Source: Deltaproteobacteria bacterium
GTDB lineage: Bacteria; Desulfobacterota; Desulfuromonadia; Desulfuromonadales; BM103
DNA: 11,425 bases
Direction of reading: 5' to 3'
Assembly: GCA_006226895.1 (NCBI GenBank)
Contig: SBFN01000129.1
Location: 1-11,425, forward strand
The translations under genes were made by a program, and so were the position numbers. The notes beneath the pieces were generated by a model. It was not told the origin of the DNA. It made no database searches and saw only the letters and a program-made list of their open reading frames with translations. Position 1 is the first letter of the stretch. Every line of letters begins with the position of its first letter. Positions 1-11,425 of this stretch are shown piece by piece.

Positions 1-243
<243 letters not shown>

Positions 244-312: not shown

Positions 313-360
313 GATCGCTTCTTACCAGTGACTAGCCTTCAACATCCAGAAACGGACCCA

Positions 361-1659
361 ATGACTGAGTACTCATGCGACACTCTCGATAACGGCCTGC
401 GCGTCATCAGCGTCCCTATGCCACATCACCACAGCACCGAGGTGATGATCTACATCGGCGTCGGCAGCCGTCACGAAACGCCCAGAACTGCTGGAGCGTC
501 GCATTTCCTCGAGCACATGCTCTTTAAAGGCACTGAGGATTTTCCCACCAGCCTGTCACTGGAACGTGCCTTCGAAGCCGTCGGCGGCTCGGCCAACGCC
601 GCCACCGATTGTGAAACAACCTGCTTCCATTCCCGCGTCCACCCCGACCACTTTGCCAAAGGGATCGCGCTTTTTGCATCAATGATGCAGCGCCCTCTCT
701 TCAACGACATCGAAATGGAACGCCGGGTTATCCTTGAGGAAGCCATGGGTGACCTCAATGAAACCGGGCGGCAGATCAACTCGGACAACATCGTCGCAAG
801 CCTGCTTTTCCCGAAACACCCGCTGGGCATGCCGACTGTCGGCAACCGACCGGCGATCGAGCGCCTCTCCCTGCGACAGCTGAAGCAACACCACGCCACC
901 TACTACACACCGCTGAACGCTGTCCTGGCGATCGCCGGGCCGATCGAACACGCCAAGGTCGTTTCGGCAGCCAAGGAACATTTCGGCCAATGGCAGGGCG
1001 CTGCGGCCCCTTCGCCAAAAGCATGGACCGATTTCTCAGAGAAAGATAAAACCCTGCGCTGGGTTCGTGACGCCGGCTCCCAGGTCAACCTGCAATTAGC
1101 CTTTTTGCTGCCTGGCCGCGACAGTGACTGTGCCGTAAACTTGCGCGTCCTGCGACGTCTCCTCGGCTGGGGAGGAATGAGCCGCCTGATGCTCCGTTTG
1201 CGCGAAGAGCTTGGCCTAACCTACGCCGTTGACGCCGCACTCGCCCTCTACGCTGACGCCGGAACCCTGGCGATTGACCTGGCCGTTTCGGCTGAAAACC
1301 TTGGCAAAGCGACCACTGCAATTCTGGAGATCGTGACCGAACTGCACAACAGTGAAGTAGGCAAGGATGAACTGGAACATATCCTTAACTGCTATCGCTG
1401 TGACCTTGATTATTCCCGTGACCAGGTCGACGAAATGGCTCTGCGCTACTCTTGGGGAGAACTCACAGGCAGTCACCGTACCATCGCCAATGATCTCGCC
1501 GGGATCGAAACGGTTACAGCGACAGGGTTACGACAAACGGCAAAAGAGCTTCTTAGTCCGCAAAATCTGCGTGGGGCCATTGTTGGTCCCTATCGAACCA
1601 GAGACCGTAAAAAAGTAGAAGAAGTTATTGCAGAATGGAAGCCGACATCTGTCGACTAG
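361..1659 (+). CDS. M16 family zinc metallopeptidase (insulinase/processing-peptidase type)
   Basis: The product is about 432 residues, the usual size of single-unit bacterial M16B peptidases. These form clam-shell dimers that cut small or partly unfolded peptides. The inverted zinc motif HxxEH is present as HFLEH (H48, E51, H52 from this start). The third ligand is probably E127 in the block VILEEAMGDLNE, about 75 residues later, as expected. The N-terminal TLDNGLRV and the C-terminal-domain block REELGLTYAV are typical of the family. An in-frame GTG at 328 would add 11 residues. I prefer ATG 361 because homologues begin close to the LDNGLRV block, but neither start has a good ribosome binding site (only CGGA at 353-356). 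No signal peptide is evident, so a cytoplasmic location is likely. The substrate cannot be read from sequence. Confidence 0.9.
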   Translation: MTEYSCDTLDNGLRVISVPMPHHHSTEVMIYIGVGSRHETPRTAGASHFLEHMLFKGTEDFPTSLSLERAFEAVGGSANAATDCETTCFHSRVHPDHFAKGIALFASMMQRPLFNDIEMERRVILEEAMGDLNETGRQINSDNIVASLLFPKHPLGMPTVGNRPAIERLSLRQLKQHHATYYTPLNAVLAIAGPIEHAKVVSAAKEHFGQWQGAAAPSPKAWTDFSEKDKTLRWVRDAGSQVNLQLAFLLPGRDSDCAVNLRVLRRLLGWGGMSRLMLRLREELGLTYAVDAALALYADAGTLAIDLAVSAENLGKATTAILEIVTELHNSEVGKDELEHILNCYRCDLDYSRDQVDEMALRYSWGELTGSHRTIANDLAGIETVTATGLRQTAKELLSPQNLRGAIVGPYRTRDRKKVEEVIAEWKPTSVD

Positions 1660-1908: not shown

Positions 1909-2610
1909 TCAACGTTGCTTATTACGTCCCTGAATAAAGTCTTGCAAAAGACGCTCCTCTTCGATGCTCAGAAACTCGACTCCCATACCTGCGGGGTGGT
2001 CTCTTCTGACAGGGGAGGTCGTGGAGTTTACCCAAGCAACACGCCCCTCGCAATAGACGACACAATTGTTCTCAGGGAGCTCTAACTTAAGCTTCAATGA
2101 CTCACCTGGAGGCAAGGGGTTCTCAGTCTCCAAAAACAGTCCCCCTGCACTCACATTAAACGTAACACTCACCGTATCATCAGAAAGGACTTTGCCCTTG
2201 CCGTAAAAAACTTCAAGCTTAAAAGGCATTCGTGGAGTTCGACGCTTATTGAGGGTAATTTGCAGTATTGTTTTGAGTTGTTTTTCGTTGAGAGGTTTGC
2301 TGAGAAACGTTGAAATACCGACTTTTCTGGCCTCTGAAATTTTATCCTCATCTTGCTCGCTTGAAAGCATGACCACAGGAACAAATTTACAGCTGGGGTA
2401 TTTTTTTACCTGCCTCGTAAACTCTATTCCGTCCATGACTGGCATGTTCATGTCCGAGATAATCATGTCAAACCTGGCAGACTCAGCCTTTTGACAAGCC
2501 AAGCGGCCACTGTCAGCCGTGGTGACTTCATAACTGAGGTTCGTCAACATATCTCCGATGACTTTCAGCATAAAAGGAGAATCATCTACAACGAGAATCT
2601 TTTTTTTCAT
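1909..2610 (-). CDS. Response regulator: receiver (REC) domain fused to a PilZ domain
   Basis: The product is about 233 residues from ATG 2610; a GTG at 2622 would add MAII. Residue numbers here follow the GTG form. A CheY-like receiver spans about 8-125, with acidic pair D13/D14, phospho-acceptor D57 in ISDMNMPVMDG, S87 and K109 (KP motif), so all phosphorylation residues are present. A PilZ domain follows from about 127, with RxxxR (R127, R131) and NxSxxG (N156, S158, G161), the two motifs that bind cyclic di-GMP. It has no DNA-binding domain, so it should act by protein contact in the cytoplasm under dual phosphorylation and c-di-GMP control. No kinase is nearby. Base composition is lower in GC than its neighbours (24-26 of 60 bases in sampled lines). 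The partner is unknown; adjacency to the operon at 3060 is only suggestive. Confidence 0.92.
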   Translation of the reverse strand: MKKKILVVDDSPFMLKVIGDMLTNLSYEVTTADSGRLACQKAESARFDMIISDMNMPVMDGIEFTRQVKKYPSCKFVPVVMLSSEQDEDKISEARKVGISTFLSKPLNEKQLKTILQITLNKRRTPRMPFKLEVFYGKGKVLSDDTVSVTFNVSAGGLFLETENPLPPGESLKLKLELPENNCVVYCEGRVAWVNSTTSPVRRDHPAGMGVEFLSIEEERLLQDFIQGRNKQR

Positions 2611-2695
2611 AATGATTGCCACGCCGATTTAATAGAACCCATTCAATTCGGAGCACTATAGCAAACTCGACTCACAATATCCTCACAAATCTCCC

Positions 2696-3059: not shown

Positions 3060-3920
3060 ATGCGGGCAGTCATTGCCCACACCCTCCACCTTGCCTTCTT
3101 TCTGATGTTCACGGTGTCGCCACTCTACGCCGGCGACCAGCAGCTCGAATCTATCCGCAAAAGCATCACCGCCCTCGATAGTGCCAGGCAGACAGCTCTG
3201 CAGGAGCTCGAAAAGACGGCTATGTCTGCCAACGAGGTTGCCGATTACAAAGACTTTGTTGTCTACCTCAACACCCGGATTGTCAACTACTGCATGGATC
3301 TCGCAAACCAGGGAGGAGCTAACGCTCTTGAAGATCTGCCCTGTCCTGAAGCGCCTGCTATGGTCGGTAACAGCGAGGCCTCTCCCTCTGGTGAGAGTAT
3401 TTTTTCTACGACCGGACCCAACTTCGGGGCAGCCAAGACTCAGGCTGAAGAAACTGCGCAGTTGGAGGGGGCCTTTCTCTCCTCCCTGGGAGACTTCGAC
3501 GACAGCTTGTTGAAGGAAGAAGAAAAAGTTGCGGCCAGAGTTCCCAGCCAGAGGGAAACCGGCAGTTCCAGTGCGTCCGGAAGCAGCGGCCGAGCAGGTG
3601 AATCGGGCGAGACCCGTTCCGGAGAAAGCGATGCGAGTGAAGAGCAGGGCGAAGGCGCAACGGAGGATCAGGGCCTGGAAGGCCAAGCGGGGGCAGCCCA
3701 AGGTTCAACGGGCCGCTCAGGATCTCAGGGCAGCGGCGTGGGGCAACCAACATACGGCGCCCCCGGAGGAAACCTGCCTCCTCCTGAGGATGACGATATC
3801 GTTGCCCGGCAACTGCGCGAAGCCGCCGAAAAGGAGCCCGATCCGGAGCTGAGAAAGAAACTCTGGGAGGAGTACTGGAAGTACAAGGGCGTAAACAAAA
3901 AAAGGAGTGAAAATCGATGA
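3060..3920 (+). CDS. Exported protein with Gly/Ser/Glu-rich linker and charged helical C-terminus
   Basis: The product is 286 residues from ATG 3060. This start gives a clean Sec signal peptide: MRAV, a hydrophobic core, then SPLYA before GDQQ. In-frame GTG 3012 and ATG 3018 would add 14-16 residues; none of the three has a good ribosome binding site, so the start is uncertain. Mature residues about 25-100 look helical and contain two cysteines (NYCMDLA and LPCPEA) that could pair in the periplasm. Residues about 162-237 are low-complexity Gly/Ser/Glu/Gln. The end (about 244-278) is a charged helical block beginning DDDIVARQLREAAEKE, followed by an aromatic LWEEYWKYKG element, and looks like an interaction module. 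It is the first gene of the operon after the 2916 promoter and overlaps the next by ATGA. I do not recognise a named family. Confidence 0.75.
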   Translation: MRAVIAHTLHLAFFLMFTVSPLYAGDQQLESIRKSITALDSARQTALQELEKTAMSANEVADYKDFVVYLNTRIVNYCMDLANQGGANALEDLPCPEAPAMVGNSEASPSGESIFSTTGPNFGAAKTQAEETAQLEGAFLSSLGDFDDSLLKEEEKVAARVPSQRETGSSSASGSSGRAGESGETRSGESDASEEQGEGATEDQGLEGQAGAAQGSTGRSGSQGSGVGQPTYGAPGGNLPPPEDDDIVARQLREAAEKEPDPELRKKLWEEYWKYKGVNKKRSENR

Positions 3921-5152
3921 ACAGGTTGTTCGTGCTGTTTGCCTCACTCCTCGCCCTGTCCGGATGTGCCTCACTCAGCAACAAGGTTGCGGACGGGGTA
4001 AAACCGATCGTCGCGACGCAGGAACTGGACAGCTCGGAACTACTCGATGTGGCAATCGTCGTTTTTGATTCCGAGGAATTAACGGACAAGGAGATCCGTG
4101 AACTGGGCTTGTCCGAGGAGATTCGTCGCGCCGAAGAGCGCTTCATCCCGATCCACCTTAAGTACACCATGCAACGGACCGGTCACTGGGGAGCCGTGCG
4201 GGTCGTCCCTGAAGAAAACGCCGCCCATCTTCAGGTCCGTGGCACCATCATCCACTCGGATGGTGAACAGCTGATCCTTGACATCGAAGCTTATGATTCA
4301 CGCGGCGTTGCGTGGTTTGAAAAATCCTATGCCGAAGAGCTCGGCCTGGTTGACTTCCACGGCAGCTCCCCCGGAGAGAAGGACCCGTTCCAAGATCTTT
4401 ACAACACCATCGCCAACGACCTTATCGAGCAGCGGAACCAGATGCCGGTCGCCGCTATTCAGGAAATTCAGCAGGTTTCCGAACTCCGCATAGCGCAAGA
4501 CATGGCCAGTGACGCGTTTGCCGGTCACCTCTCCCGCAACGAAGAAGGTCGCTATTCGCTGATCAGACTCCCTGTCGAAAATGACCCCATGCTGAAAAGG
4601 GTGCGGGCCGTTCAGGTGCGTGACGATATGCTGCTCGACACCATCAACGGTTATTACGAAATCTACTACAATGACCTCTGGCAGCCCTATGGAGACTGGC
4701 GGAAACTCTACAACGAAGAACTCGCTGCGCTGAATAAAGTCAAGAAACAAGCTCTGACCCGACAGCTGTTAGGCCTCGTCTCTGTTATCGGTGGCGTCGC
4801 GCTCAGTACCGGCAACAGCAACCTCTCCTCCTCCAACCTCCCCGGGGTCATGGTTATGGGAGGCGCCGCGGCGATTTACAGTGGTTTCCAGAAGCAGGAA
4901 GAGACCAGAATTCACAGGGATGTCATCGAAGAGCTAAGCATGTCCTTCTCCTCCGAAGCAGAGCCCCTGGTCGTGGAGGTCGTCGGCGAAACGGTCCGAC
5001 TCACCGGCTCAGCCGAAGAACAGTACCAAAAGTGGCGCGATATGCTTCAACAGATCTACGCCGCGGAGACCGGCCTGCCGCCTGTACCGACTGAAAGTGA
5101 CCTCGGTCAATCGGGAGGCTCTGGCTCCGGGCCAGGCAAGCTTGATCAATGA
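3917..5152 (+). CDS. Outer-membrane-type lipoprotein
   Basis: The product is 411 residues. The N-terminus has a short basic start, a hydrophobic stretch and the lipobox LSGC with C17 as the lipidation site. Residue +2 is alanine, not aspartate, which favours Lol-dependent transfer to the outer membrane. Residues about 40-175 look like a mixed alpha/beta domain, and about 180-280 a helical part rich in charged and aromatic residues. At about 280-322 there is a Gly/Ala/Val-rich stretch (VSVIGGVALSTG, then VMVMGGAAAIYSG) that could be a pair of glycine-zipper membrane helices. The C-terminal tail is Gly/Ser-rich. The start is set by AAGGAG (3902-3907) and overlaps the previous stop by ATGA. No named family was recognised; context makes it the likely outer-membrane anchor of the operon's product. 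Confidence 0.85.
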   Translation: MNRLFVLFASLLALSGCASLSNKVADGVKPIVATQELDSSELLDVAIVVFDSEELTDKEIRELGLSEEIRRAEERFIPIHLKYTMQRTGHWGAVRVVPEENAAHLQVRGTIIHSDGEQLILDIEAYDSRGVAWFEKSYAEELGLVDFHGSSPGEKDPFQDLYNTIANDLIEQRNQMPVAAIQEIQQVSELRIAQDMASDAFAGHLSRNEEGRYSLIRLPVENDPMLKRVRAVQVRDDMLLDTINGYYEIYYNDLWQPYGDWRKLYNEELAALNKVKKQALTRQLLGLVSVIGGVALSTGNSNLSSSNLPGVMVMGGAAAIYSGFQKQEETRIHRDVIEELSMSFSSEAEPLVVEVVGETVRLTGSAEEQYQKWRDMLQQIYAAETGLPPVPTESDLGQSGGSGSGPGKLDQ

Positions 5153-6657
5153 CCGAAGACTCCACCCCCAAACAGGATAACGGCGAACCGTCAAGGAGGA
5201 CTCCGACTCTGGTCCCTCCTGATGCAACCGCGGTAGAGGAGCAAAAATCTTCCCGCACCCCGTTGCTGGTGGCAGTTGGTGGCCTGTTGCTGGTGATCGC
5301 CGCTCTGCTGGTCGTTCTTGTGCCGCTCTTGAGTGAAGACCGAACGGCACCGACAACCGTAAAGGAAGCCGACACCCTCAAACCACAAGCTGCAACCCAA
5401 AAACAGGCGATCACTCGTTCGGAGGCGACGGACCCGGCGGCAACCGAGATCGAACAACTGATCGGCACCTGGCTGCATAAACAGGCCGAAGCCGAAGCGG
5501 AAAACGTCGCGGCGTGGGGTGGTGAAAGCTATAGAGTGGCAACGTTCAGGGGCAAAGAATGTAGCCAGTTGCTGCAAGAGAAACAGTACCTGACGGCACG
5601 AGAAGCTTGCAATCAAGCAATCGACAAGCTGAACGCTCTCATGGCGTCGAAAGAGGCGCTTTTCGAAGAGGCCTTCGCTGCGGGACTGCTGTCTCTCGAG
5701 CAGGGCAATCCGGAGCCTGCCGTCGAATATTTCCAGCAGGCTCTCGCCATCGATGCCGATGAGGAGAGAGCCACGGCGGCCCTGCACAGAGCAGAGCAAC
5801 TCCCCACTGTGCTGCGTTTCATGCACGACGGTCAGACCATGGAAACCGCCGGTGATCCGGAAGGGTCGCTTCGGGCGTTTTCAGAAGCCGCAACTCTTGA
5901 TCCGGAATATGAACCTGCGCAGCAGGCTCTGGCCCGGGTCAAAGCAGCGATCGCCGAGAAAGAGTTTCAACTGGCCATGAGCCGTGCCCTGCAGGCGATG
6001 GCCGAGGGCAAAACCGCTGCAGCCAGAACAGCGCTGCAAAAAGCCGAAACCATCAAGCCCGGAGATCGTGCCGTTGATGATCTCAAGCAACGACTTTTGC
6101 GGAACCAGCTTGCCGGCAGACTGTCCGCCCTGCGTCGGAACGCAGAGCGCATGGAGCGGGAGGAACGTTGGTCGGAGGCGTTAAGAACCTGCACAGAAGC
6201 GCTCAGCCTGGATTCAAATGCAGCCTTCGCCTCCAGTTGCAAGGAGAGGGCGAAGCTGCGGGTTGAGCTGGACAATCAGTTCACGGCGATTTTCGCCAAA
6301 CCGGAACGTCTCTTTACCGCTGGCCCCAGGCAAGAAGCCCGACAAACGTTGCTCTATGCCTCGCAATTCTCTCTCCGCGGACCGATTCTCGCCTCACAGA
6401 TGGACCGGCTTGAAGCGTTGGTCACCGAGGCCGAGGCCGAGATCGAAGTCGTGATTATATCGGACGGGCTAACTGATGTGGTGATCTATCATGTCGGCCG
6501 CCTTGGCTTTTTCCAGGAAAAACGGCTTGTTCTGCGCACAGGAAACTACACCGCCACTGGCAGCCGCAACGGCTTCAGGGATGTGCGGCAGACACTCAAA
6601 GTTCGACCGGGCTCCGGCAAAATGGTCTTCACCCTGCGCTGCGAGGATCCGATTTGA
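5149..6657 (+). CDS. Single-pass membrane protein with TPR-like repeats and C-terminal beta domain
   Basis: The product is 502 residues. Residues 1-36 are a polar, proline-containing cytoplasmic tail. Residues about 37-61 are one strong transmembrane helix rich in Leu and Val, giving an N-in/C-out topology. Residues about 165-385 contain at least four TPR-like helical pairs, recognisable by endings such as EYFQQALAIDAD, AFSEAATLDPEY, ALQKAETIKPGD and TCTEALSLDSN. The end (about 431-495) is a small beta-rich domain containing SDGLTDVVIYHVG and TGNYTATGSRNGFRDV, with the glycine-turn pattern of PEGA domains. It is therefore probably a periplasmic scaffold binding partner proteins. It begins with an ATGA overlap and no clear ribosome binding site, so translational coupling to the lipoprotein gene is likely. 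The enzymatic role, if any, is unknown. Confidence 0.85.
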   Translation: MTEDSTPKQDNGEPSRRTPTLVPPDATAVEEQKSSRTPLLVAVGGLLLVIAALLVVLVPLLSEDRTAPTTVKEADTLKPQAATQKQAITRSEATDPAATEIEQLIGTWLHKQAEAEAENVAAWGGESYRVATFRGKECSQLLQEKQYLTAREACNQAIDKLNALMASKEALFEEAFAAGLLSLEQGNPEPAVEYFQQALAIDADEERATAALHRAEQLPTVLRFMHDGQTMETAGDPEGSLRAFSEAATLDPEYEPAQQALARVKAAIAEKEFQLAMSRALQAMAEGKTAAARTALQKAETIKPGDRAVDDLKQRLLRNQLAGRLSALRRNAERMEREERWSEALRTCTEALSLDSNAAFASSCKERAKLRVELDNQFTAIFAKPERLFTAGPRQEARQTLLYASQFSLRGPILASQMDRLEALVTEAEAEIEVVIISDGLTDVVIYHVGRLGFFQEKRLVLRTGNYTATGSRNGFRDVRQTLKVRPGSGKMVFTLRCEDPI

Positions 6658-9050
6658 ACCGTCTGATCGAAATAATCGGCAGAGAAGAGGTCCTCAAGTT
6701 TGACGAGACCGACCTGCCCCTGCTCATCGGTATGGACGCCACCGCCCATGTTCGTCTGGATGGCGAAGGGGGCATCGTCGCTTACGTTGCGGAGTCCCGT
6801 AACCATCTCTTTCTGCAGCCTGCGGACGGCACCGCTCCCGGTGCTGTTTATCACAACGATGAACCGGTGACCGGTTCGGTCTGGCTGAAAGCTGGAGACA
6901 CAACCCACATCGGGGAGACCCTCATCTCCTGGCATCTTTCAGGACAGCGTGTGGAGATTCATCTCTCCAAATCCTCGGCCCAAAGGCTGCGCCCCCCTGT
7001 TGAATCCCCGGAGGAAAGCGTCGCTGATGAACAGGTCCTGCCGGTTGTGGAGGCGCCACGCACTGATGGACACAAGCTTCGAAAGCTGGTCGTTGTTCTC
7101 TTTCTGCTCCTTTTAACCGGAGCGGCCTTTGTGCTGCTGGCCAACCCCCTCTCTGTCGTGGTCACACCCGCTCCGGACAGCCTCTCCGTGTCCGGCTTTC
7201 CGCCACCACTGAAATCCGGCGACAGCTACCTGGGGATTCCTGGCAGCTACACTCTCCACGCCGAGAAGAAAGGCTACTTCCCTTTAGAAGAAACCATTGA
7301 GATTATCGGCAGCGGCAGTCGTTACAACTTCACCATGGAGAAGCTGCCGGGCCTGCTTGACCTGACCAGCACCCCCTCCGGAGCCACCGTGCTGCTCAAT
7401 GGCCTTGCGATTGGAAAAACCCCTCTCCAGGGTGTGGAGATTCCTGCGGGTAGCCGTAGTATAGGCTTCGAACATGACCGCTACCTGCCAGACGAAGCAA
7501 CGATCGAAATCGAAGGTTTTGCTGCAAAACAGGAACTGCATGTCGACCTCGAACCGGCCTGGGCCATGGTCACTCTTCGCACAGAACCGGAGAACGCGGC
7601 CCTGAGCGTCGACGGGGAGGAGCTTGGCACAACGCCGCTGGAGTTGGAGTTGATCGCCGGCAGTCGCGAACTGATATTCAGTAAAGAAAACTTCTCTCCT
7701 CTTGAAGTCAAGCTTGACGTTGTCGCGGGAGAGGAGATGACGCCCGCTGTTTATCAACTTGAACCGGCGCCGGCCAAGGTTGCCATCGCTTCGATTCCGA
7801 GCGGGGCTACGGTAACTATCGATGGTGGTTACAAAGGGCTGACGCCTCTTACCATCGAGCTTTCGCCAGGGGACAAACACGTTCTCCGTCTGACCCTGCC
7901 CGGTTACCAGTTGGCAAGCCGCAAGGTGCTATTCGAAGCTGAAGAGGAGCGTGATCTAAATATCAAACTCGAACCGGAGTACGGAACGATCTTCATCACC
8001 GGAGATCCTGCAGATGCTCTCCTCTATATCGACGGCAAGAAACAAACTTTATCCAGCGGTCGCTTCCGGCTGACCACAAAACCCCATACTGTCGAAATGA
8101 AAGCCAAAGGCTACGTGAGCGCGAGCAAGACCGTGACGCCACAGGCCGCTTACAGTCAACGCATCGAGATAAAGCTGCAGGACAAACAGATCGCTGCTGC
8201 GCCCAAAGCCGTGGGCGCCCCCGAACCGGTCAAAGCAACGGGCCTCGGCCAGAAGCTGGTCCTCATCAAACCAAGGCCTTTCATCATGGGCGCCTCCAGA
8301 AGAGAAGCGGGGCGTCGTGCCAACGAAAGTGAGCATAAAGTCGCCATGCAGAGGCACTTCTATCTCTCTTCTCGCGAGGTGACAAATGCCGAATACAAAC
8401 TGTTCCGGGCGCAGCATTCTTCCGGCATGTCCGGTAACCGTTCTCTCGACATCGATTCACATCCGGTCGCAAACGTTTCCTGGGAGGATGCCGCAAGATT
8501 CATGAACTGGCTCAGCAGAAAAGACGGGCTGCCATCTTTCTACCGCGAAGATAATGGCACCATGGTTGTCGCTGATCCGGGAGGCACTGGCTACCGTCTG
8601 CCCAGCGAAGCAGAATGGGCCTTCGCTGCCAGGATGGCTGGCCAGAAAGAGAGGGCGCGCTACCCCTGGGACGGCAAATATCCGCCGAAGGCCAAAGCAG
8701 GTAACTTCGCCGATGAATCAGCGCGGCACCTTCTGCCCGTGGTCATCGGGGGCTATAACGATGGCTTCGCAGCGAGTGCGCCGACCGCTTCTTTCTCTGC
8801 AAACCCGGCAGGCATTCATGACCTCGGCGGCAATGTGGCGGAGTGGTGTCACGATTACTACTCCGCTTTCAATGGCAATGCGGAAGAGAACGCTGTCGAT
8901 CCAATGGGCCCGACAAGCGGCGCACATCGCGTGGTCCGGGGTTCAAGCTGGCGCAATGCCAGCATCACTGAACTGCGCTTTAGTTATCGTCGTTACAGCA
9001 AGGAAGCCGCCAACGACATTGGTTTCCGGATAGCGAGGTATGCAAAATGA
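6654..9050 (+). CDS. FHA-like / transmembrane / PEGA-repeat / FGE-SUMF1-like multidomain protein
   Basis: The product is 798 residues. Residues about 1-105 resemble a degenerate FHA domain (LPLLIGMDA near the start; VWLKAGDTTHIGETLISW at the end), without the canonical arginine and serine-x-x-histidine phosphothreonine site. One transmembrane helix lies at about 144-166, so the remainder is periplasmic. Residues about 165-500 hold about five PEGA-like beta units, recognisable by TPSGATVLLNG, EPENAALSVDG, IPSGATVTIDG and DPADALLYIDG. Residues about 535-798 form an FGE/SUMF1-like domain with REVTNAEYKLF, GYRLPSEAEWAFAARM, DLGGNVAEWCHDYY, VVRGSSWRN and GFRIAR. The cysteine pair that serves copper-dependent formylglycine formation is absent from the C-terminal block, so a binding or structural role is more likely than catalysis. 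Translation starts at TTG 6654, supported by GAGGA (6643-6647), and overlaps the previous stop. Confidence 0.88.
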   Translation: MNRLIEIIGREEVLKFDETDLPLLIGMDATAHVRLDGEGGIVAYVAESRNHLFLQPADGTAPGAVYHNDEPVTGSVWLKAGDTTHIGETLISWHLSGQRVEIHLSKSSAQRLRPPVESPEESVADEQVLPVVEAPRTDGHKLRKLVVVLFLLLLTGAAFVLLANPLSVVVTPAPDSLSVSGFPPPLKSGDSYLGIPGSYTLHAEKKGYFPLEETIEIIGSGSRYNFTMEKLPGLLDLTSTPSGATVLLNGLAIGKTPLQGVEIPAGSRSIGFEHDRYLPDEATIEIEGFAAKQELHVDLEPAWAMVTLRTEPENAALSVDGEELGTTPLELELIAGSRELIFSKENFSPLEVKLDVVAGEEMTPAVYQLEPAPAKVAIASIPSGATVTIDGGYKGLTPLTIELSPGDKHVLRLTLPGYQLASRKVLFEAEEERDLNIKLEPEYGTIFITGDPADALLYIDGKKQTLSSGRFRLTTKPHTVEMKAKGYVSASKTVTPQAAYSQRIEIKLQDKQIAAAPKAVGAPEPVKATGLGQKLVLIKPRPFIMGASRREAGRRANESEHKVAMQRHFYLSSREVTNAEYKLFRAQHSSGMSGNRSLDIDSHPVANVSWEDAARFMNWLSRKDGLPSFYREDNGTMVVADPGGTGYRLPSEAEWAFAARMAGQKERARYPWDGKYPPKAKAGNFADESARHLLPVVIGGYNDGFAASAPTASFSANPAGIHDLGGNVAEWCHDYYSAFNGNAEENAVDPMGPTSGAHRVVRGSSWRNASITELRFSYRRYSKEAANDIGFRIARYAK

Positions 9051-9277
9051 AATTCTTGTCCATCACGCTTGCCCTGGCCCTGATCGCTGCCAGCGCAGTT
9101 GCTCTCGATAAGGACACCAGTAAGCAGACCCAGAAGAGTGCAGAGACCGGTGAAGTAAAACAAGACGCAGAAAAAAAAGGTACCAAGGAAAAGAAGTCGC
9201 CGACATGGCCACGCCCCTATAAATCAACTGAAGAGATAAGTGTGGACAGCATCGTCCCCTTCCCGACTGATATCTGA
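9047..9277 (+). CDS. Small exported Lys-rich protein
   Basis: The product is 76 residues. A signal peptide of about 19 residues ends in ASAVA before LDKD. The mature part is a Lys/Glu/Thr-rich, probably disordered stretch of about 35 residues. A distinctive C-terminal segment follows: WPRPYKSTEEIS, then VDSIVPFPTDI. The Trp/Pro/aromatic end contrasts with the polar linker and looks like a docking peptide. Translation starts at ATG 9047 with GAGG at 9035-9038 and overlaps the previous stop by ATGA. Despite its size it is well supported by signal peptide, ribosome binding site and operon spacing. Function is unknown; an accessory or linker subunit of the neighbouring membrane complex is the simplest guess. 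Confidence 0.78.
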   Translation: MKFLSITLALALIAASAVALDKDTSKQTQKSAETGEVKQDAEKKGTKEKKSPTWPRPYKSTEEISVDSIVPFPTDI

Positions 9278-9294
9278 ATGAGGTGATACGTCTT

Positions 9295-10104
9295 ATGCGC
9301 GGAAAAAATTTTCCTACCGAAATGATCTACCAGGTCTTTAGCCTGCTGTTGGTCTTCATCGTCGTTCATGGAGCCTATGTCTCCCTGATCCGGCCCAAAG
9401 CAGAGTCATTCCTGAGCATGCAGCAGGCCCGCATGGCGGAACAACCGGACGCCGTTCAGGAACAGAGCTTCTACGTTGTCATCCGTGATTTCGAGCAGGA
9501 AGCCTGTCTGGTCCTCTTCTTCTGGGCCATGGCGATCCTCATTTACAAGGGTGTCGCAATCTGGCGTCAGCAGGGCCAGCTGGACGAAGATCTGCTGCAA
9601 TTGCCCGGCAACATGCCGATCGGCCCGGAAGATACGCGGGAGTTGATGGGGCGATTACAACAACTGCCGAACACGAGCCGTGATTTATTGCTACCGGCAG
9701 CCTTGATGAACTCGGTCCAGCGGTTCGCCGCAACCCGCAACATCCAGGATGCAGCCACCTCGGTCCGTGAAACCTGCGAAGCCCACGGCGACCGTCTCGA
9801 TTCGGAGCTCTCCACCATTCGCTATATCGCCTGGGCCATTCCCTCGGTCGGCTTTATCGGCACCGTGCGCGGTATCGGCGCAGCGCTCTCCCAGGCCCAT
9901 CGTGCCGTCGAGGGAGATATCACCGGCGTCACCCAGAACCTCGGCGTGGCCTTCAACTCCACCTTTATCGCCCTGGTCTTAAGCATTGTGATGATGTTCT
10001 TTATTCATCAACTCCAGCACCGCCAGGAGCGCTTGATCCACGATGCCGGCGCCTACTGCCAGCGCAACCTGATCAACAAGCTGCGGATCAAACCCGCACC
10101 CTGA
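9295..10104 (+). CDS. MotA/TolQ/ExbB-type proton channel subunit
   Basis: The product is 269 residues from ATG 9295, chosen because GAGGTGAT (9280-9287) sits 7 bases upstream; the in-frame GTG at 9283 lies inside that site. Four hydrophobic segments are visible: about 10-32, 67-87, 175-198 and 216-240. The last two carry the family core: AIPSVGFIGTVRGIGAAL, then TQNLGVAFNSTFIALVLS. These correspond to the channel-lining helices of the ExbB/TolQ/MotA family (the GxxGTVxGI block and the A(F/I)xxT block). A polar segment of about 85 residues lies between helices 2 and 3 and should be cytoplasmic. Such proteins form pentamers round a dimer of ExbD/TolR/MotB-like partners and use ion-motive force. 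Here the partners are the next two genes. It is not close enough to TolQ, ExbB or MotA to take any of those names. Confidence 0.88.
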   Translation: MRGKNFPTEMIYQVFSLLLVFIVVHGAYVSLIRPKAESFLSMQQARMAEQPDAVQEQSFYVVIRDFEQEACLVLFFWAMAILIYKGVAIWRQQGQLDEDLLQLPGNMPIGPEDTRELMGRLQQLPNTSRDLLLPAALMNSVQRFAATRNIQDAATSVRETCEAHGDRLDSELSTIRYIAWAIPSVGFIGTVRGIGAALSQAHRAVEGDITGVTQNLGVAFNSTFIALVLSIVMMFFIHQLQHRQERLIHDAGAYCQRNLINKLRIKPAP

Positions 10105-10119
10105 AAATAAGGTTTTTTC

Positions 10120-11217
10120 GTGCCCCCTCGTCGACGTAGCAGCTCACAATTCAACCTGGCATTCCTCGACGTCATGTGTTGTGGTTTTGGCGCAGTCGTG
10201 CTGTTGGTCATGCTGCTGAACGGTGACATGCTGGCCACCCGTAAGGAGATCGTCACCGATCTGCGCAGCGAGGTTATGCGTCTCGAACGCGAAGTCAAGG
10301 TTGGTAAAGAGCACCTGGTCAGCCTGCAAAACAGCATGGTCCAGACAGAAGAGGACATCGTTCGTACAGAGGGTCTCTCCCGCCAGGTGATCAGCAGTCT
10401 GGAACAGACCAAACTCGAACTGGCCACAATGAGTGGTAAAAGTCAGGCGGCAAAAAAACATATTAACGCCCTGCAATCAGACCTCCTCAATCTGGACGCA
10501 GAGAGTCGACGCATCGGGGCGGAGCAACAAACAGAGCTTGCCCGTGGCGCCCAGGTTCGCGAGTTTATCGGCCAGGGAGACCGGCAGTATCTCACCGGTC
10601 TGCGGCTCGGCGGCAAAAGAGTCCTGCTGCTGGTTGACGCCTCGGCCAGCATGCTCGATGAAACCATCGTCAACATCATCGTCCGTCGCAATCTTGATGA
10701 CCGCAGCAAGAAAGCTTCTCCCAAATGGAAGCGCACCATCAGAACCGTCGAATGGTTGACCGCCAACCTCCCTGCAGACAGTTCGCTACAACTCTACACC
10801 TTCAACACCGAGCCCTCTCCCACCGCAGCAGAACTGAGAAACAAGTGGGTTAAGATCTCTGACAACAAGAATATCAACCGCATGCTGGCAGCGCTCAAAC
10901 AGACCATCCCTCAGGGGGGGACCAGCCTCTACAACGCCTTTGCTGCGGCCGCGCGCATGAAACCGCGTCCCGACAATATCCTCCTGCTTACCGACGGTCT
11001 CCCCACCCAGGGGGAGAAAAAGAGTTCGAAGAACACCATCTCGGGCGATAACCGCCTGAAACTTTTCCATCAGGCGACCGGAGTTCTGCCCAGAGCCGTG
11101 CCGATCAACACCATCCTCTTCCCGATGGAAGGCGATCCCATGGCTGCGGTCTCTTTCTGGAAACTCGCCATAGAGACAGGAGGGTCTTTCCTCACCCCAA
11201 CGAGGGATTGGCCATGA
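10120..11217 (+). CDS. Membrane-anchored coiled-coil protein with VWA (MIDAS) domain and ExbD-like N-terminal helix
   Basis: The product is 365 residues from GTG 10120, with TAAGG (10108-10112) upstream. After a basic tail (PPRRR), residues 11-34 form one transmembrane helix with the motif FNLAFLDVMCCGFGA; D17 sits where ExbD/TolR/MotB carry their ion-binding aspartate. Residues about 40-150 are a long charged heptad-like coiled coil. Residues about 165-360 are a von Willebrand factor A domain with a complete metal site: D173-A-S175-A-S177 (VDASASM), T268 (GGTSLYNAF) and D292 (LLTDGLPT). Such domains bind partner proteins through a divalent cation. Topology N-in/C-out puts the VWA domain in the periplasm. 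It follows the channel gene by 15 bases, mirroring exbB-exbD order. ExbD homology rests on motif and context, not a proven alignment. Confidence 0.87.
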   Translation: MPPRRRSSSQFNLAFLDVMCCGFGAVVLLVMLLNGDMLATRKEIVTDLRSEVMRLEREVKVGKEHLVSLQNSMVQTEEDIVRTEGLSRQVISSLEQTKLELATMSGKSQAAKKHINALQSDLLNLDAESRRIGAEQQTELARGAQVREFIGQGDRQYLTGLRLGGKRVLLLVDASASMLDETIVNIIVRRNLDDRSKKASPKWKRTIRTVEWLTANLPADSSLQLYTFNTEPSPTAAELRNKWVKISDNKNINRMLAALKQTIPQGGTSLYNAFAAAARMKPRPDNILLLTDGLPTQGEKKSSKNTISGDNRLKLFHQATGVLPRAVPINTILFPMEGDPMAAVSFWKLAIETGGSFLTPTRDWP

Positions 11218-11425
11218 GAAACCGGCGCCGCCAGATTGAGGTTTTCAACCTCTCCTTTCTCGACGTGATCTCCTGCGGTTTCGGGGCCATCATCCTGTTG
11301 CTGGTCATTTCGAAGATCTCCGAGCCCCGGGTGATCGAACAGACCAATGTCGACCTCTCAGGCCTTGTGATACAGCTGGAAGAAGAGCTCTACGACATCC
11401 GTGGGGAAACCCAGATTCTCAACCG
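11214..11425 (+). CDS. Second ExbD-like membrane-anchor protein, N-terminal part
   Basis: The gene is cut by the right edge; 70 complete codons are visible. It starts at ATG 11214 with GAGGGAT (11202-11208) upstream and overlaps the previous stop by ATGA. The N-terminus is basic (MRNRRRQ). A transmembrane helix follows with FNLSFLDVISCGFGAIILLL; its aspartate is again residue 17, exactly as in the preceding gene. After the helix a charged stretch (VIQLEEELYDIRGE) begins what is probably a coiled coil. It is therefore a paralogue of the VWA protein's anchor, at least over the first 35 residues. Whether it also ends in a VWA or other domain lies outside the window. Confidence 0.82.
   Translation, partial: MRNRRRQIEVFNLSFLDVISCGFGAIILLLVISKISEPRVIEQTNVDLSGLVIQLEEELYDIRGETQILN

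What the first reader, a model, noticed from the sequence alone, without database searches (positions are those of the whole stretch)
3060..11425. Candidate undescribed ion-driven envelope complex encoded by one tight operon
Seen: seven or more genes in one direction with 4-base overlaps or gaps under 20 bases. They encode two exported proteins, a lipoprotein with LSGC, two single-pass proteins carrying TPR-like, PEGA-like and FGE-like domains, a TolQ/ExbB-type channel, and two aspartate-bearing single-helix anchors, one with VWA. Known: MotA/TolQ/ExbB channels always work with a single-helix partner carrying an essential aspartate and power work across the periplasm. Inference: the operon builds a complete inner-membrane motor, periplasmic scaffold and outer-membrane anchor unlike Tol-Pal, TonB, Mot, Gld or Zorya. 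The presence of every compartment in one operon is the strongest argument.
Basis: partly seen in the sequence, partly recalled or inferred. Interest (0 to 1): 0.78.

Follow-up and report, generated by a model that had tools for sequence, protein, structure and literature searches.

The report
Conserved eight-gene ion-driven envelope machine
Eight tightly packed bacterial genes, found together in the same order in distantly related bacteria, appear to build an ion-powered machine reaching from the inner to the outer membrane; a motor core of this kind has been predicted in print before, but I found no description of the full gene set, and its job is unknown.

Summary
Eight genes (A-H, 3060-11425, + strand) overlap by 4 bases or lie 15-17 bases apart: two exported proteins, a lipoprotein, TPR and PEGA-FGE inner-membrane proteins, a MotA/TolQ/ExbB channel and two aspartate-bearing single-helix anchors. 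Corrections: both anchors carry VWA-type domains (the contig ends inside H), and the PEGA-FGE protein has an FHA-fold head in its structure model.

The set is a real unit. Of 39 loci with enough upstream sequence, 35 keep all eight genes in order. Lipoprotein and anchor, searched separately, co-occur in 20 of 321 Gammaproteobacteria genomes (1.7 expected) and 5 of 297 of the window's phylum. Motor residues are invariant in the alignments.

It is not wholly undescribed: PMC12204202 (2025) predicts a tolQ-like channel with paired aspartate-bearing VWA anchors, which fits F-G-H; what I read of it names no other genes for that family. New here: the eight-gene module, lipoprotein B's FlgT/TolB-N/PelC/CsgG-like fold, the FHA head, an FGE domain lacking the catalytic Cys pair, and a clade with an extra gene X.

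Most likely it transmits inner-membrane ion-motive force to an outer-membrane lipoprotein. The cellular task is unknown.

The parts
3060..3920 (+). A: exported protein with signal peptide, Ser/Gly-rich middle and conserved C-terminal motif (DDIVARQLREAAEKEPDPELRKKLWEEYWKYK in the window)
   Evidence: ATG at 3060; alignment A10 of 20 sequences, window included; motif in 34 of 39 A proteins, some of them partial
3917..5152 (+). B: lipoprotein (LSGC, Cys17), FlgT/TolB-N/PelC/CsgG-like domain at residues about 25-183, then long helices
5149..6657 (+). C: single-pass inner-membrane protein (hydrophobic segment at residues 40-58), TPRs, weakly PEGA-like C-terminus
   Evidence: Pfam TPR_2 2.2e-12; TPR_2 in 23 of 23 aligned members, PEGA in 4 of 23 at E<=1; hydropathy
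6654..9050 (+). D: FHA-fold head (residues 1-98), TM (about 141-163), PEGA domains (4 Pfam stretches), C-terminal FGE-type domain without the catalytic Cys pair
9047..9277 (+). E: 76-residue exported protein ending in a conserved FPxDI motif
   Evidence: Overlaps D's stop by 4 bases; 57 of 58 E proteins in the 80 scanned loci end in FPxDI; no family match above cut-off
9295..10104 (+). F: MotA/TolQ/ExbB-type channel subunit; Thr190 and Thr223 align with TolQ threonines
   Evidence: PF01618 3.2e-15; TolQ alignment, weak, E 0.1; both Thr in 31 of 31
10120..11217 (+). G: transpore-helix anchor (Asp17) with coiled coil and VWA domain, complete MIDAS set
   Evidence: VWA_2 1.9e-6; Asp17 and D173, S175, S177, T268, D292 in 31 of 31
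11214..11425 (+). H: first 70 residues of the second anchor (Asp17); cut off by the contig end
   Evidence: Translation; remainder on C126 of the same genome; full-length relatives about 331 aa with VWA-type domain

Best explanation
The operon encodes one trans-envelope, ion-driven machine. F is the channel pentamer of a 5:2-type motor, and G and H are its two different central anchors, whose transpore helices each carry the ion-binding aspartate. Ion flow would turn or swing the G/H pair, and their periplasmic VWA heads would act, directly or through C, D, A and E, on B, an outer-membrane lipoprotein with a FlgT/TolB-N/PelC/CsgG-type domain. D's cytoplasmic FHA fold, and gene X where present, would link the motor to a cytoplasmic partner. 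Shown: the genes, their order, co-occurrence and conserved motor residues. Modelled: the folds of B and D. Inferred: 5:2 stoichiometry, assembly, outer-membrane location of B, direction of force. Most likely task, with low certainty: moving or positioning an outer-membrane complex, as Tol-Pal does.
For: Order A-H kept in 35 of 39 loci with at least 8.3 kb upstream of H (six of the 35 with X between F and G); G beside H in 80 of 80; F in 61 of 61 loci with at least 2 kb upstream. B and H profiles, searched apart, meet in 20 of 321 Gammaproteobacteria genomes (24 with H, 23 with B, 1.7 expected) and in 5 of 297 of the window's phylum (5 with H, 6 with B, 0.1 expected). Of the B-only genomes, G540 shows only broken A-B-C pieces in the 19 kb fetched, and G645's contig ends inside G. 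Asp17 of G and of H and both channel threonines 31 of 31 each. G and H homologous. B and D folds. Among ORFs of 90 aa or more outside A-H, no family recurs in more than 11 of 80 loci.
Against: No experiment, multimer model or phenotype. F's similarity to solved TolQ is weak (E 0.1). The FHA head is seen only in the model. B's fold rests on one model; Foldseek had no match at E<=0.001. The system is rare: strong H in 5 of 297, 24 of 321 and 2 of 246 genomes (both of the last already known), so it is not essential. Four Gammaproteobacteria have strong H without a detected B (G568, G667, G669, G672); the G568 stretch also lacks detected E and F, and two divergent loci lack detected E (L182, L183). 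G349 has B without a detected H. Some sampled genomes also supplied rows of the search profiles (G058 among them). Distance correlation between genes (0.71-0.94 over 34 loci) partly reflects shared ancestry.
Confidence: 0.7

Rival explanations
1. It is a surface-motility or adhesion motor of the Agl-Glt kind: a proton channel with two different anchors drives envelope-spanning complexes that grip a surface.
For: Myxococcus uses AglR with two MotB/TolR homologues, AglQ and AglS, plus a TPR protein and VWA lipoproteins (passages of PMC4488436). G has a weak match to the CglB model (E 0.02, bits 13.9 against a cut-off of 200).
Against: No OmpA-type match among A-G or E and no CglB-level match; here the VWA domains sit on the anchors, not on lipoproteins; no neighbour family of any kind recurs in more than 11 of 80 loci (neighbours were not annotated).
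Confidence: 0.2
2. It is a secretion or assembly motor comparable to the type 9 system, with the FGE-type domain of D doing what GldK/PorK does.
Against: GldK score 110 bits against a cut-off of 350; D is a single-pass protein by hydropathy, not a lipoprotein; no GldL, GldM or GldN match; FGE-type domains occur in many unrelated proteins.
Confidence: 0.12
3. It is an anti-phage defence motor like Zorya.
For: F has a weak ZorA match (1.1e-4, bits 19.3); the distribution is patchy.
Against: No ZorB, ZorC or ZorD match among A-H (H from relative L032) and no recognisable cytoplasmic effector in the operon. Neighbouring genes were not scanned against the defence library.
Confidence: 0.04

Closest known systems
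TPH-vWA motors, the second VWA family of PMC12204202 (2025)
   Same: tolQ-like gene, no tolR/exbD, heterologous pair of single-helix VWA proteins with the transpore aspartate; proposed to turn inside the pentamer
   Different: Section 8 and the Fig. 4 legend name no lipoprotein, TPR, FHA-PEGA-FGE or small exported protein for this family (a TPR gene is named for the other, SHLS-type family); the figure image and supplement were not seen; sequence identity with the Idiomarina family was not tested
Tol-Pal
   Same: TolQ-like channel; B's domain resembles TolB's N-terminal domain
   Different: No TolA, TolB propeller or Pal match in the operon; 7 of 7 relatives tested keep a TolB_N protein over cut-off
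Agl-Glt gliding machinery
   Same: Channel with two different anchors, TPR protein, VWA proteins (passages)
   Different: No OmpA-type barrel match; VWA placed on the anchors
T9SS GldK/PorK
   Same: FGE-type domain
   Different: Below the GldK cut-off; no GldL/M/N match

Membership tests
TPH-vWA motors (PMC12204202) | tolQ-like gene with no tolR/exbD beside it | tested here: met
   F matches PF01618; no ExbD/TolR match among A-D, F, G (E<=0.1), E or in 31 H proteins among the 25 of 154 families shown
TPH-vWA motors (PMC12204202) | Heterologous pair of single-helix VWA proteins with transpore aspartate | tested here: met
   G and H adjacent in 80 of 80 loci; Asp17 31 of 31 in each; VWA weak in H
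TPH-vWA motors (PMC12204202) | Sequence homology to the Idiomarina seed | not tested
TPH-vWA motors (PMC12204202) | Helix pair sits inside a TolQ-like pentamer | not testable with these tools
   Single-chain structure prediction only
Tol-Pal | TolA, TolB propeller and Pal domains in the operon | tested here: not met
   No such Pfam match at E<=0.1 nor among the families shown for H
MotAB stators | OmpA-like peptidoglycan-binding domain on the anchor | tested here: not met
   G and H end in VWA-type domains; no OmpA match shown
T9SS/Gld | GldK-level match | tested here: not met
   110 bits against cut-off 350
Zorya | ZorA with ZorB and cytoplasmic effectors | tested here: not met
   Only a weak ZorA match for F; no other Zorya protein among eight tested
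Catalytic formylglycine-generating enzymes | Active-site Cys pair | tested here: not met
   No Cys in that aligned stretch in 25 of 25 D proteins; which residues are catalytic is recalled
FHA domains | FHA fold in D's head | tested here: inconclusive
   Model matches many FHA structures, Pfam does not; phosphothreonine-binding residues not evident by eye

The most novel reading that the evidence does not exclude
A motor class of its own: a channel turning two different VWA-headed anchors whose metal-binding (MIDAS) faces grip an outer-membrane lipoprotein ring made of B, with an FHA-fold cytoplasmic input that can be carried on D or on the extra protein X.
Probability: 0.25. Interest if true: 0.82.

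Novelty: new variant of a known kind. Interest (0 to 1): 0.6.

Why it matters
Channels of the MotA/TolQ/ExbB type power a handful of well-studied machines. A fixed eight-gene set with inner-membrane, periplasmic and candidate cytoplasmic and outer-membrane parts gives a parts list for a predicted motor of unknown function. It names testable partners for the VWA anchors, above all lipoprotein B, and shows that a motor core like the published one belongs to a larger conserved module in at least some lineages.

Tried and rejected
Chance clustering: rejected by order and co-occurrence. Active FGE enzyme: rejected for lack of the Cys pair. Replacement for Tol-Pal: unlikely, 7 of 7 relatives tested keep TolB_N. 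X as an Hsp70/actin-like ATPase: it looks so by eye, but Pfam and a PDB profile search gave no such match; left open. FHA on D by sequence: no Pfam match. E: weak PepSY_2 match (0.0063, below cut-off), nothing else of note. H of L076 in the plasmid collection: no match. Profiles of G and H against solved structures gave mostly coiled-coil matches (best 60 rows seen). Literature searches listed a paper with this motor core only as PMC12204202; of it I read section 8 with the Fig. 4 legend and term passages. Of PMC12505986, PMC12905483 and PMC4488436 I saw term passages only; other listed papers I saw as listings.
Full report
What is there. The window is the whole of contig C114 (11,425 bases) of a 60% complete genome of 1.6 Mb. 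Eight genes lie on the + strand from 3060 to the end. Five junctions overlap by 4 bases; the other two are 15 and 17 bases. The start of F is better placed at ATG 9295 than at GTG 9283. The contig ends inside H; H residues 40-332 open contig C126 of the same genome. No Rfam family reached its threshold and no tRNA was found in the window.

Motor residues. Across 31 sequences each, F Thr190 and Thr223, G Asp17 with its five MIDAS positions, and H Asp17 with its DxSxS motif are invariant. The match of F to solved TolQ places both threonines on TolQ threonines but is weak overall, E 0.1; that these are TolQ's channel threonines is recalled. G and H align over most of their length, probability 99.6, E 1.1e-23, 21% identity. 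The signature around the aspartate, as I wrote it, fits 68 of 73 full G and 70 of 79 full H.

Is it one unit? In relatives of the window, G was found in 15 of 58 genomes: 10 of 11 in the genus counting the window's own, 3 of 11 in the rest of the family, 2 of 36 in the rest of the order. Eleven of these loci were fetched; the eight long enough show all eight genes in the same order. Among the 80, G precedes H in all; 39 have at least 8.3 kb upstream, and 35 of these hold all seven other genes in order, six of them with X between F and G. The four exceptions are L076 (D-G only), L078 (C not detected), L091 (A and B not detected) and L118 (A not detected; B at the contig end). No order exception was seen among the 80. 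The profiles were built by iteration on these same loci, so weak members could be drawn in, most of all for the short E. Loci L032-L042 and some of L043-L122 are the same contigs; only L043-L122 were counted.

Independent co-occurrence. H and B were searched separately in the same evenly drawn genomes. In the class of L076's genome (Gammaproteobacteria): H at E below 1e-70 in 24 of 321, B in 23, both in 20; 1.7 expected. The window's phylum: H in 5 of 297, B in 6, both in 5; 0.1 expected. Genomes are related and a few supplied rows of the profiles, so the Fisher values (6e-25, 3e-10) overstate significance. Weaker matches were not counted: 9 Gammaproteobacteria and 3 of the phylum for H, one of the phylum (G291) for B. 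Of the three B-only Gammaproteobacteria, G645's contig ends inside G and G540 shows only broken A-B-C pieces in the 19 kb fetched; G453 has a B match with three stops inside and a weak anchor match. H-only: G568, G667, G669, G672. G669 has the other seven genes without a detected B; G568 lacks detected B, E and F; G667's contig is short; G672 was seen only in part. G349 of the phylum has B without a detected H. In Planctomycetota, strong H occurs in 2 of 246, both already known; 39 others have weaker matches, some over the transpore helix, not followed up. Divergent Gammaproteobacteria keep most of the set at lower similarity, two with F after H (L178, L186) and two without detected E (L182, L183).

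A variant. In 8 of the 80 loci an extra gene X of about 365-480 codons lies between F and G. These eight form one side of a branch with SH-aLRT support 100 in a quick G+H tree of 72 loci. X of L091 ends in a clear FHA domain (5.7e-12); L110 and L111 have sub-cut-off FHA matches there. By my reading, five of the eight loci lack the FHA-like head on D (L110, L111, L118, L121, L122), while seven of the eight X proteins have a C-terminal extension. This suggests that the head can move between D and X. X profiles also match beside G in further Gammaproteobacteria.

What it may do. The parts appear to span the envelope, and 7 of 7 relatives tested keep a TolB_N protein, so this looks additional to Tol-Pal. 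The best-supported picture is a motor F-G-H coupled through C, D, A and E to lipoprotein B. Its task is not known. Patchy distribution says that it is accessory. Gliding or adhesion, secretion and defence are rivals with less support.

What is known. PMC12204202 (section 8 and Fig. 4 legend read; other passages) describes tolQ-like genes with heterologous pairs of transpore VWA proteins and models them; it calls the function of its first, SHLS-type VWA family unknown and assigns the second only putative force transduction. The second fits F-G-H by features. A TPR gene is named only for the first family. PEGA does not occur in the main text, and the one 'FHA' hit is FhaC; the figure image and supplement were not available to me. 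Eight literature searches in an open-access library that lacks most subscription papers listed no description of the eight-gene set, so the claim of novelty for the full module is limited to that.

Noticed in passing
window 1-243: The C-terminal end of an open reading frame that looks like porphobilinogen synthase (HemB); recalled, not searched.
   Followed up: no
window 328-1659 and 1909-2622 (-): An M16 peptidase and a receiver-PilZ protein lie upstream; both are kept beside the operon only in some close relatives.
   Followed up: partly
L189 and L190 (G058): In a chromosome-level assembly A-B with a partial C and a partial D with E-H lie about 1.2 Mb apart; a rearrangement or an assembly error.
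   Followed up: partly
L191 (G540): A decayed copy: broken A, B and C pieces in the fetched stretch, and the H search listed no match for that genome.
   Followed up: partly
L063: A contig labelled Halobacteria archaeon carries the operon, nested among Ectothiorhodospiraceae in the tree; probably a wrongly binned contig.
   Followed up: no
L091, L104, L109, L110, L111, L118, L121, L122: Extra gene X between F and G, with a clear C-terminal FHA domain in L091; its main domain had no Pfam match above cut-off in the seven tested and no PDB profile match.
   Followed up: partly
A C-terminus (window about 3790-3890) and E C-terminus (window about 9230-9274): Two very conserved short motifs end two otherwise variable exported proteins, as if each docks on a partner.
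   Followed up: no
L130, L131 and weak Planctomycetota matches: More distant transpore-helix proteins, in L130 and L131 beside F-like channels, possibly other members of the wider motor family.
   Followed up: no
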